Assembly (NCBI RefSeq): GCF_023343835.1
Contig: NC_064437.1
Location: 8,831,001 to 8,895,000 of the forward strand
DNA: 64,000 bases
Direction of reading: 5' to 3'
Source: Lagopus muta
Taxonomy: Eukaryota > Chordata > Aves > Galliformes > Phasianidae
Part shown: positions 43,772 through 63,540 of the stretch, piece by piece
Layout of the letters: every line of letters begins with the position of its first letter
Position numbering within the stretch: position 1 is the first letter of the stretch
Translations under genes and position numbers: made by a program
Notes under the pieces: generated by a model
Databases searched by the model: none
Seen by the model: only the letters and a program-made list of their open reading frames with translations
What the model was told of the DNA's origin: nothing

Positions 43772-58560
<14,789 letters not shown>

Positions 58561-59486
58561 TTTTGCTTCAAGAAGAAAAAGAGCAAATTGAGTTTTTGCA
58601 GCAATTCAGTAGATTACATAAAATGTCCTTTTCTATACAAGAGTAAATAAATAAAATCACACAGGTCTTGATAATGCTTTAGTTATTACACTGGAACAAA
58701 GCTGAAGCAAGGTCTTCACAACTTCTAGTGGTACAAACCAGACCTATAACCTTATAGCTATAAAAGAGACCAGAAAGAAAGGCTCTTTATTCCTATTTTT
58801 TTATCTCTTTCTCAGTGCACAGCTGTGAGTTTTCTCCCACTTGAGAAGTACATACAATCTCTCCCTTCCAAATCAGCTGTAAGCATTGATGATACAGAAA
58901 GAAGCAAGGCCATGGGACTTCTGCACAAAGTCTTTCTCTTTTACCAACTCCCTACTGACTGACTGAGGAAAAAGCTCTGATTACTGCTGCAGTTGGTGAT
59001 AAACACATTTTTAAGTAATTCTGACACATCAATATAAACAGCCATGTGCAAAAAAGCAGTAGGTCTTTATGTGTTTACACATTTTGAACCCCAAAATGGC
59101 TTTGTCATCCTGCTCTTTTCCATCTCCTTGCTCAAGTGGTAAGGGATGCTATCTTTTAAAGAGCTGAAAAGTCTCCTGTTCCCATACTGTGGAAATCTGC
59201 CTGTGGACTCTGCTGGCAATTTGACAACAAGAACTCAACTTACCTAAGATGCAGTTCAAGTACAGACAATATAACAACTAGTATTGCTATCACAGAAGGT
59301 AATAGTAATACTGATTTATCACAAATTCACAGGGGAGTAGCATTCTTCTATTACTAAAGGGAGAATATGAAAATACTGCACAAGGTAAACATCACTTTGG
59401 GCTTGGGCTTCTGTCATGCTTAACACCAGGACATGCATGCATTTTCCATGTGAAATGCAATACACCCCAGCAGGACCTTCCATTAC

Positions 59487-59597
59487 CTGTTGCTGGCGTT
59501 ATAGCTGCTGCAGACAGTAATCTGCTCATAGATTTTATCAAGGAGGAAGCTTTTATACTGTGTCCCAACATCCTCCCAATCTATCTTTCTGGCCGAA
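59487..59597 (-). other. AKR1A1: Predicted alternative 5' exon of AKR1A1 with in-frame upstream ATGs
   Basis: The 111-nt block has a good acceptor (GGTTTGTTTTTAACAG before it) and donor (CAACAG/GTAATG). Joined to the exon at 58565, it reads in frame into AKR1A1 from an ATG at 59571 (A at -3) or a second ATG at 59529. The in-frame TAG nine nt before the first ATG (AGATAG ATT GGG AGG ATG) ends the upstream frame. The added leader has 30 residues, begins MLGHSIKASSLIKSMSRLLS, and contains no Asp or Glu. TATAAAAG also occurs inside the exon on the minus strand. The exon is inferred from splice sites and phase only. Confidence 0.45.
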
Positions 59598-61329
59598 CTG
59601 TTAAAAACAAACCACATTCAGGATGAGCTCCAAAGTCAGCCAGCTGACTTCAGCAGAAGATGAGGAAGTTACTTCTCAAGTGTAGCTGTGTCCAAACTCC
59701 TGAATGCTATTTACTTAAAAACACACAGACAAGAACAAGAGTGGAAGAACACAATGCTGGCTAAATGGCTGACTATGCAGGAGGAATGTATATCTTCAAA
59801 GAGAAGCCTTCACACAGAATACTGCTCCAAAACAGCCTTCTCCATAATGCTGTTACCACCTTTCTCCTACAAATAAGCACCTACTGATGGATGCCCTCAC
59901 ACAGAAAGTTTATATTTTCAATTTCTCACTCAGCTTCTCAAGCTACGTGTTTTGAGATGGAGGTCCCCAGCACTGTTAGCCTATGTAGGTCCAGGCTCAA
60001 GCAGCATTGTGCCTCGCACACAGCATGGCCTTCATGCTGCACACACCTCACAGATGCAGGACATGCTCAGCAGAACAGAGCAGCACGCAGGCAGCTCCCA
60101 CTTGGTACCTGTCATTAGGCCACCTGCATGGCCTTGCCTTTATCTCACAGAGCAGGAAGTTCTCACGTGAGCATCTTCTCTGTTTGGCAGTACAAGTGAG
60201 TTGTTTTCTTGTAAGAGAATCCTGTAACAGCTCCAGTAACCAAAACAACGGGCCTACACAGCACACTGCATGTGCCATGGACAGCTGCTTGATGCTGTGC
60301 ACACAGGGTGCCCACCAGGTGAAGGAATGTCTCATTACCCACACAATTTGCCTTCTTTATAGGGCTATAAATGCGATAAACAGCACTTGAGATACTACTT
60401 TGCTGAGTCTGAGTGCCTTTCCTATTGGGATTGCAATGGCCCAACACTTTCTGGTACAGAATAGTGGGACAAATCAGCCTGGATTTGCACTGGGATACAT
60501 TCAGTCCGAATGGTGGTATAGAGGCAGTCATCAGACTGCTGGTGTGTGTCCATTCTGGGGAGGGGCTATAGAAAAGTCAGAATAGGACACTAACATTCTC
60601 TTCTGTGCTGAAGATTTGCACAGCCATTTTGTTGCCAGCTGTGCACAGCTGGGTCCACCTTACCTGGATTAAGCTGCCTGCATGATTCTGACATCACGCA
60701 ATGCAACCAAGGCCTGGGGGCTTTCACATGCATGCTGCCCTGCAGCACCATACACCAGGCATGTGCTCCACACTGCCGTGTTGTGCAATCATCTTAAACG
60801 CAACACTTCACCCAGAAGACAAGGTGCACGTGTTTAATTGCTAACTAACATCAGCGTGTTCTGTGGAACCATTCGCTTCATGTAATATCGTTGTACATTA
60901 AACTGCAGTGAGAGCAGAGCTGCGGACTCGGGAAGAATGCAAACGCTACAAGAAAACACTCATTAATAGTTTCCACTCAGATTCTTCCCCTAATGAGGAG
61001 ACACAAAGTGTCCATGACCCGTTGTCAGTCTGCTCATTATAAGGCAGCGAGGGGCTTTTAAGAAGGGAGAAAATACAAGCAAATACAAAAAAAAGAAGGT
61101 ACAGCTGGTACAAGTGAGATACAGCTTCATCACTCATCTCTCCTATTCCCACACACTGACACGAAAGAGAATAACACAAAGCAATGCGTGCAGGAGGCTG
61201 CATTCGTAACACGGGAAGCGCAAACTACGCCCGTCCATCCACCCACACTCACAGCTCGCCGTTAACCGAAGCCACGAGCCTTCTGCCTGCAAAACAGCGC
61301 GTACTACGGCAGCAGCGCACACGGACGTG

Positions 61330-61640
61330 TATCGCTAAAACCGCAACAACGTCCCCTGCCCGGCCCCGCCCCGCCCCCCAGCCCGGGGGCAGCCCCGCGC
61401 TCGGCTCCCCCGCAGCCATGCCCGGTGGGCGCAGCGTGTGGAGCGGCGGGAGGCGCCTCGGGGCAGCGCGCCGCACTCACCGCACCGCCGCACGATCGGC
61501 CGCCGACGCCGCTCTGCGCTTCCGCTTCCGGCCGCCAGCGGGCAGCGCGGGCCGGCGCTGTGCGGGGCGCTGCTCTCAGACAGCGTTTGTGGGGCCCGTG
61601 CGCGGCCGGGAGCGGGGCTTGGTGATCCCTTCCCGCTCTG
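61330..61640. promoter_or_regulatory. AKR1A1: CpG island, AKR1A1 promoter and first exon
   Basis: G+C-rich, CpG-dense block of about 300 bp. On the minus strand a non-coding first exon ends at 61481 with donor GGTGCG/GTGAGT. The start site probably lies between 61500 and 61620; no TATA box is seen. Confidence 0.65.
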
Positions 61641-63540
61641 ATAGTCTGTGCTGGTGTTTGTTTTATGGGCAGTCCTAATTATCAAGGATTCAGGGAACGC
61701 ACGGTGGCATGGGGGTTGGACTCGATGATCTCTTCCAACCCTTCCAACCCCTACAATTCTGTGATTCTGTGATTTACAAGCATTTGATTTTAGCTTTCGT
61801 ACTCAAAGGTGCATAAAGAAGTGCCATTTCCTGAGGAGACTTCAGGCTCCTGCTGCAGGTGCACAAGAATGCACTTCCTTATTTGCACAAGAAGGCTGCA
61901 AGCAAAATTGAAGCAGAATGACTACATCTGCGTATGTGCAGCCCTGCTGGTGCAGTCACAACTTGCAGTGATTTCAACAGGAACAGAATTGGGTCTGTGG
62001 CTGATGGCTGCTCTAGGCTTGCAGCATCCTAAACACCTCTAAGGAATACTAGAACCAGCTTTGGCGTTTACTCCAGGCTTCCATTTTTGCAGTTTATAAA
62101 CTATATATGTGAATAGTTCAAAAAGAATAGTGAGATTGTATCAGAGTAAGGCAAAGTATACATCTAACAAGGCTCTGAGGAGCCTGCTGCTTTTCTAGAA
62201 AGATTGTCCTGCTGCAGATTGTTTCTGACTTCAACTGCTCGGGAGACTTAAAAGCACGAAGGTTAATTAATCTCTTGGGCACTCACATGACCAGACTTCC
62301 CTGGCGCAGCCTGTCCTGACATAATGCAGGAGGTGGAAGGAGGACACAGAAAAGACAAGACAAGAGAGGAAGTGGAACATTGGGGAAGAATAAAATGGGA
62401 AGGGAAAACTGATGGATTTCATTTATTTTTTGAGACTTTGCCAATCAGGAATCCATTGGAAAATCTTAATAAAATCAAAAATTCCTGAATTCTATTAACA
62501 TCACATATGAAATTTTACCAAACCTCAGCTTCCAGTAACTGGAAATAGAATAGAAAAGGTAATGGAGGGTAAAATGGCTTGCCATCAAAAAGCAGACACC
62601 ATCAAGACATGTGGTAATAAAGTATGTTAATAACCAAATTTTAAGAGAGCTGTGTAGGAAGGAAGAGGCTGAGCAGGACATTTTGACCTAGAAACACAGT
62701 CTTTGCTTGGGCAAAACAAGGAAAATGAAATACGTGCCTTGTATGTTGAATGATAGGTAATTGTTTTCATTACAAGTAGCGCGCAGCAGCTGCTTGTGCA
62801 TGAATGCCCAGAGGCCTGGGAACACCTATCTGTTGCCTTACGAATTTTTGCATGTATTATGTTAAAATGTCCCCACACATACAGGAGTTTAGTCATACTG
62901 GGCTCCAGGAATATTGTGTGTACAGTGAGGTCAGTGTGCTCAGAATTCATCAGGCTTTATGTATAGGTGGAGACGAGCCCTGCAGAGCATTTACAGGCAT
63001 GCAGGGATCAGCTCTGCTGTACAAGAGCTGTGCGTCTGCTTCAGGGCATGCTAAAGGCACAAACCCAAAGCAAAGTGTATCGTGGTAGCCCTACAAAATG
63101 GGTGTTATGCATGGAAGTGTGACAAATGAGCACAATGAGCACAAGAAAGCCAATATTGCTTTGTGTGCTGGCAATATGCTGGAGTTGTGGGAGACTGCCT
63201 TGTTGTAGAGCTGTTAATTAGGACCGCCCGGCCTTCCAGGGTAACCCCTTCCCGTGTGCCTGAGCTGCAGCAGTATCTCAGTTTATAGACCTCAGTTCTC
63301 CTTACCACACGAAGTTAAGAAAGTAACAGCAGGCAGATTTGACCCCACACCTGTATGGCACTGAACGCGCACTGAATGCACAGTGCTTTGTTAATAGATC
63401 TGACTTTACTGAAGTCAGTGACAAACTCCCATTCACCTAAATGGCAAACGCCAGCTGGATCTCATTCTTCCTCTCCGTCTCCGATGACTCCTAATTATTG
63501 CGGCTTGGTTCTATTGAGGTATTAAAGCCATTTCTCGTAA
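61640..63540. other. Intergenic region between divergent AKR1A1 and PRDX1
   Basis: Apart from the CR1 remnant, I see no gene here. Open frames are short and the sequence is AT-rich until the PRDX1 island begins near 63.58 kb. Confidence 0.65.
61712..61773 (+). mobile_element. CR1 LINE 3'-end fragment
   Basis: GGTTGGACTCGATGATCTCTTCCAACCCTTCCAACC followed by ATTCTGTGATTCTGTGATT matches the 3' end of chicken repeat 1, which has this hairpin-like tail and short tandem octamers instead of poly(A). The copy is truncated to the last ~60 nt. It supports an avian origin. Confidence 0.85.

What the first reader, a model, noticed from the sequence alone, without database searches (positions are those of the whole stretch)
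59487..59597. Possible mitochondrial-type N-terminal extension of AKR1A1
Seen: a 111-nt minus-strand block with good splice sites carries two ATGs (59571 and 59529) in one frame. When joined to the next exon at 58565, that frame runs without a stop into AKR1A1 through its usual start. The extension is 30 residues, begins MLGHSIKASSLIKSMSRLLS and continues AAAITPATAK. It has four Lys/Arg, one His, many Ser/Ala/Leu and no acidic residue. The first ATG has A at -3, and an in-frame stop lies just upstream, so this would be the true 5' end of the ORF. Known: mitochondrial presequences have this composition, and AKR1A1 is usually described as cytosolic. Inference: alternative 5' exon use could make cytosolic and mitochondrial forms.
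Basis: partly seen in the sequence, partly recalled or inferred. Interest (0 to 1): 0.75.

Follow-up and report, generated by a model that had tools for sequence, protein, structure and literature searches.

The report
Unproven mitochondrial-type exon in AKR1A1
A short stretch inside the first intron of a vertebrate enzyme gene could, if it were spliced into the message, add a mitochondria-addressing tag to a normally cytosolic enzyme, but nothing available here shows that the stretch is ever used.

Summary
A 111-nt minus-strand block (59597-59487), bounded by AG and GT, joins in frame to the AKR1A1 start exon; spliced to the eight coding exons it gives 357 aa instead of 327. It lies in intron 1, between a probable CpG-island exon 1 (donor 61481) and the ATG exon (58565); a genome search found no second copy.

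The peptide is presequence-like: net +4, no acidic residue, an amphipathic stretch, a Tom20-type MSRLL and a plausible MPP site. Its donor 9-mer is identical to a PRDX1 donor.

Against it: the acceptor scores below all 13 AKR1A1 and PRDX1 acceptors scored. Five other AG/GT pairings in the same intron score at least as well on both sites, two of them with in-frame ATG extensions. Only the presequence character is uncommon: 3 of 417 pairings, at 2 places.

No RNA, second bird genome or peptide data could be searched; ten paper searches turned up no mitochondrial AKR1A1 isoform. My odds: chance pseudo-exon or splicing noise 0.5, mitochondrial isoform 0.3, non-coding leader or promoter 0.2. The novelty grade is conditional on reality.

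The parts
59487..59597 (-). Candidate cassette exon, 111 nt, in AKR1A1 intron 1
   Evidence: Sequence; acceptor score 1.45, donor score 3.57; only one match, itself, for a 501-base query in the genome
59488..59571 (-). 28 whole codons of the 30-residue presequence-like extension (Ala29 is split by the junction, Lys30 lies in the next exon)
   Evidence: Translation of the joined exons
59581..59583 (-). In-frame TAG, four codons upstream of the first ATG
59550..59557 (-). TATAAAAG inside the block: possible core-promoter element (rival reading)
   Evidence: the word occurs 6 times on the two strands of 109 kb
61481..61550 (-). Probable non-coding AKR1A1 exon 1; the 5' edge is approximate, the donor GCG|GTGAGT at 61481
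   Evidence: CpG-rich 61251-61750, donor score 5.91, no ATG in 61700-61481; start site inferred, not shown
58471..58565 (-). AKR1A1 exon with the usual ATG (58560)
43772..53342 (-). Remaining seven AKR1A1 coding exons (53342-53223, 51702-51551, 49440-49245, 48647-48448, 47629-47557, 46480-46394, 43837-43772), intact 327-aa frame
60664..60739 (-). Competing pseudo-exon with a stronger donor (7.81) and an in-frame ATG extension that is less presequence-like (one acidic residue)

Best explanation
The block is most likely a pseudo-exon: intronic sequence that happens to carry an acceptor, a donor and an in-frame ATG, is spliced rarely or never, and by coincidence encodes a presequence-like peptide. 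The working gene starts at the CpG-island exon 1 (donor 61481), splices to 58565, and makes the 327-aa cytosolic enzyme.
For: The acceptor is weaker than 13 of 13 scored acceptors of AKR1A1 and PRDX1. Intron 1 holds five other pairings with both sites at least as strong. In-frame extensions are common: 62 of 417 pairings, and in intron 1 two of the five other pairings. The intact 327-aa ORF needs no extra exon. Ten paper searches turned up no mitochondrial AKR1A1 isoform; one paper calls AKR1A1 cytosolic (PMC4523020, passages).
Against: The donor is good: rank 14 of 1044 GT sites, above 4 of 8 AKR1A1 donors and identical as a 9-mer to a PRDX1 donor at 67653. A CTGAC branch-point-like word lies at -39. 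The peptide combines several presequence traits at once; only 1 of 400 shuffled introns held such a pairing.
Confidence: 0.5

Rival explanations
1. A real alternative cassette exon that makes a mitochondrial AKR1A1. When included between exon 1 and 58565, its ATG at 59571 becomes the first AUG of the mRNA. The 357-aa precursor is bound by Tom20 through the MSRLL helix, imported, and cut by MPP near R17-L18-L19/S20. Skipping, or leaky scanning to the in-frame ATG at 58560, gives the 327-aa cytosolic enzyme. Shown: the frame, the ATGs and the motifs. Inferred: inclusion, import and cleavage.
For: Net charge +4, no acidic residue and 8 Ser/Thr in 30. 11-residue hydrophobic moment 0.69, against 0.48-0.95 in nine recalled human presequences and 0.25 and 0.39 in two cytosolic N-termini; permutation p 0.014. 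MSRLL fits the LSRLL-type Tom20 motif described in PMC9041937 (passages). RLLSAAA resembles the RQLSAAA of a probable ALDH2 exon 1 in this same genome (L031). AG/GT with a CTGAC branch-point-like word. First AUG has A at -3. Precedent: AKR7A2 makes mitochondrial and cytosolic/nuclear forms from in-frame starts (PMC13219423, passages). Weak and confounded: AKR1A1 is among differential proteins of a Percoll-purified duck-liver MAM fraction, alongside ENO1, TPI1 and PGK1 (PMC12681742), and in a table of excluded candidates of a mouse renal mitochondrial-proteome study (PMC11934170).
Against: No transcript or conservation evidence. Weak acceptor. The 18-residue moment is unremarkable (0.41, permutation p 0.13). 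One Arg only, against 2-6 in the nine recalled presequences. MAM and mitochondrial preparations carry cytosolic proteins, and neither paper reports an extended N-terminus in the passages seen.
Confidence: 0.3
2. The block is a transcribed leader but not a targeting device: an alternative 5' UTR exon with little translation from its ATG, or a TATA-driven alternative promoter (TATAAAAG at 59557-59550) whose start near 59525 lies downstream of the first ATG, so that only the usual protein is made.
For: TATAAAAG is present. The 3' part of the block plus its good donor could form a short first exon spliced to 58565, with the usual ATG then the first AUG.
Against: TATAAAAG occurs 6 times on the two strands of 109 kb, so its presence is weak evidence. 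A CpG-island promoter lies 1.9 kb upstream. If the whole block is included, the first AUG has a fair context and some translation is expected.
Confidence: 0.2

Closest known systems
AKR7A2 alternative N-terminal isoforms (PMC13219423, passages seen)
   Same: An aldo-keto reductase whose upstream in-frame AUG gives a mitochondrial form and whose downstream AUG gives a cytosolic/nuclear form.
   Different: There both starts lie on one mRNA with a very short 5' UTR, or are separated by promoter choice, and localisation was shown. Here a separate, unproven exon would carry the upstream AUG.
ALDH2-type matrix presequence and its Tom20-binding LSRLL segment (PMC9041937, passages seen; probable own-genome exon 1 in L031)
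   Same: MSRLL followed by SAAA; charge, hydroxylated residues, amphipathic short helix.
   Different: One Arg instead of several; no DNA match to the block elsewhere in the genome, so the likeness is not common descent as far as tested.
AKR1A1 (aldehyde reductase)
   Same: The downstream eight exons are an intact AKR1A1, best PDB matches to AKR1A1 chains for the first coding exon.
   Different: The usual protein starts at MSAGCDF without the extension.

Membership tests
Cleavable matrix presequence | 15-60 residues, net charge +3 to +6, rich in hydroxylated residues (list in PMC9041937) | tested here: met
   30 residues, net +4, no acidic residue, 8 Ser/Thr
Cleavable matrix presequence | Amphipathic helix | tested here: inconclusive
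   11-residue moment 0.69, permutation p 0.014; 18-residue moment 0.41, p 0.13; no structure predicted
Cleavable matrix presequence | Tom20-type motif and MPP-type site | tested here: met
   MSRLL at 15-19, R17-L-L-S; short motifs, frequent by chance; the R-3 form of the site is recalled
Cleavable matrix presequence | Drives import into mitochondria | not testable with these tools
   Needs a fusion or fractionation experiment; TargetP and MitoFates not available
Spliced cassette exon | AG/GT ends, pyrimidine tract, branch point | tested here: inconclusive
   Present; donor good, acceptor below 13 of 13 scored acceptors
Spliced cassette exon | Transcript support or cross-species conservation | not testable with these tools
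   No RNA data; the genome tool states that this genome has no relatives held
Dual-localised protein through alternative N-terminus | In-frame upstream AUG continuous with the usual ORF | tested here: met
   357-aa frame with one terminal stop
Dual-localised protein through alternative N-terminus | Both forms made and found in two compartments | not testable with these tools
   No peptide or localisation data
AKR1A1 | Full-length AKR1A1 reading frame in the expected exon order | tested here: met
   Eight exons matching recalled human AKR1A1, 327 aa

The most novel reading that the evidence does not exclude
This vertebrate AKR1A1 has an alternative first coding exon that supplies an ALDH2-like presequence, so a classic cytosolic aldehyde and S-nitroso-CoA reductase is also placed in the mitochondrial matrix, where aldehydes and acyl-CoA thiols arise.
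Probability: 0.3. Interest if true: 0.65.

Novelty: new member of a known kind. Interest (0 to 1): 0.35.

Why it matters
If the exon is used, AKR1A1 would join the proteins that gain a second compartment through an alternative N-terminus, and work on AKR1A1 in birds would need to separate two pools. It would give a direct test of whether aldehyde or S-nitroso-CoA reduction happens inside mitochondria. If it is not used, it shows how often in-frame extensions with targeting-like composition turn up in introns. The novelty grade applies only if the exon is real; my leading explanation is that it is not a working exon.

Tried and rejected
Transposon exonisation: a 501-base query around the block found only itself in the genome (that search skips simple repeats and very common words).

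A retrocopy as a record of the transcript: the extended N-terminus gave 17 matches at E 0.01 or better, and only the block itself covers the extension (counts there are lower bounds).

Origin from ALDH2 exon 1 by duplication: peptide likeness only, no DNA match.

First genome pattern search was badly chosen, gave 137 unrelated places and was not used, except for its note on the genome.

Duck AKR1A1 qPCR primers from PMC12681742 compared with the region: best 17 of 20 bases for the reverse primer at 48461 (coding) and 15 of 22 for the forward primer; no information on the leader.

Literature: ten searches. I saw passages of ten papers (PMC12681742, PMC5759888, PMC4523020, PMC4834580, PMC13219423, PMC11934170, PMC11623340, PMC9041937, PMC13137910, PMC12622967) and whole texts of none. 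Peptide strings from the extension occur in no held paper. No supplements could be read.

Not done: structure prediction, TargetP or MitoFates, conservation in other birds.

Full report
What is there. The window lies in a 1.03-Gb genome at C8:8831001-8895000. The minus strand carries a complete AKR1A1: eight coding exons (58565-58471 through 43837-43772) join to a 327-aa frame ending HYPFHDPY. PRDX1 lies divergently beyond 64 kb. Two CpG-rich stretches mark promoters: 61251-61750 for AKR1A1 and 63501-64750 for PRDX1. The first ends in a donor, GCG|GTGAGT at 61481, which I take as the end of a non-coding exon 1; its start site is not shown. The finding's block sits in the 2,915-base intron between 61481 and 58565.

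Check of the observation. The acceptor, donor, both ATGs, the upstream in-frame TAG (59583-59581) and the in-frame junction are as described. The joined frame gives 357 aa. Ala29 is split across the junction and Lys30 is encoded by the leader bases of the next exon.

Splice signals. I scored sites with textbook-like matrices written from recall, so the scores are only relative. The block's donor CAGGTAATG ranks 14 of 1044 GT sites on the minus strand at 61480-45000, beats 4 of 8 AKR1A1 donors and is identical to the PRDX1 donor at 67653. Its acceptor ranks 127 of 1238 and is below all eight AKR1A1 and all five PRDX1 acceptors scored. A CTGAC branch-point-like word lies at -39 and CTCAT at -27.

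Chance. In intron 1, six AG/GT pairings of 50-250 bases reach both of the block's scores, the block included. Two of the other five, which share one donor (60664), also give in-frame ATG extensions. In 400 dinucleotide shuffles of the intron there were 3.8 pairings on average. 52 of 400 held an extension of at least 20 aa with an upstream stop, 23 of 400 one of at least 30 aa, and 1 of 400 a presequence-like one. In real sequence, 417 pairings over both strands of 109 kb gave 62 extensions of at least 20 aa, 29 of them with an upstream stop, 4 of those without acidic residues, and 3 presequence-like at 2 places, the block being one. The thresholds differ slightly between the two calls and were set after seeing the block.

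Peptide. Net charge is +4, with no Asp or Glu and eight Ser/Thr. The best 11-residue segment is SLIKSMSRLLS, moment 0.69, permutation p 0.014; over 18 residues the moment is 0.41 with p 0.13. Against the reading, it has one Arg where the nine have two to six. MSRLL matches the LSRLL-type Tom20 motif named in PMC9041937 (passages). A probable ALDH2 exon 1 of the same genome reads MLRVAGFVSRLCRGPARQLSAAAASPIPAPN (L031; its own match was weak, E 0.26, but it lies beside strong ALDH2 matches), and shares LSAAA with the block.

Copies. The block and its flanks match only themselves in the genome, and no retrocopy carries the extension.

Literature. Ten searches found no mitochondrial AKR1A1 isoform. 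One paper calls AKR1A1 cytosolic (PMC4523020, passages). Two give weak, confounded hints: AKR1A1 is among differential proteins of a duck-liver MAM fraction that also lists ENO1, TPI1 and PGK1 (PMC12681742, passages), and it is in a table of excluded candidates in a mouse renal mitochondrial-proteome study (PMC11934170, passages). AKR7A2 is the nearest precedent: in-frame starts give mitochondrial and cytosolic/nuclear forms (PMC13219423, passages).

Mechanism if real (inferred). Inclusion makes the ATG at 59571 the first AUG, since no ATG lies in 61700-61481. Its context is GGGAGGATGTT, with A at -3. The precursor would be taken up by the presequence pathway and cut near R17. Skipping, or leaky scanning to 58560, would give the cytosolic form.

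Verdict. Observation confirmed; interpretation partly supported. I put 0.5 on a pseudo-exon or splicing noise, 0.3 on a mitochondrial isoform, and 0.2 on a non-coding leader or TATA promoter (TATAAAAG at 59557-59550). RNA junctions and conservation, neither available here, would decide.

Noticed in passing
window 60739-60664 and 60902-60664 (minus): Another pseudo-exon in the same intron with a stronger donor and an in-frame ATG extension (MHVKAPRPWLHCVMSESCRQLNPAK or longer); a candidate alternative leader exon.
   Followed up: partly
window 61771 downwards to about 61660 (minus): A stretch beginning CACAGAATCACAGAATTGTAGGGGTTGG, which I recall as the 3' end of a CR1 element, just upstream of the AKR1A1 CpG island.
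   Followed up: no
L009 5610-5689 (window coordinates 64610-64689 if continued): Exact tandem duplication of a 40-base unit in the PRDX1 upstream region.
   Followed up: no
window 59353-59244 and 59375-59244 (minus): Pairings with both splice sites stronger than the block and no in-frame extension.
   Followed up: no
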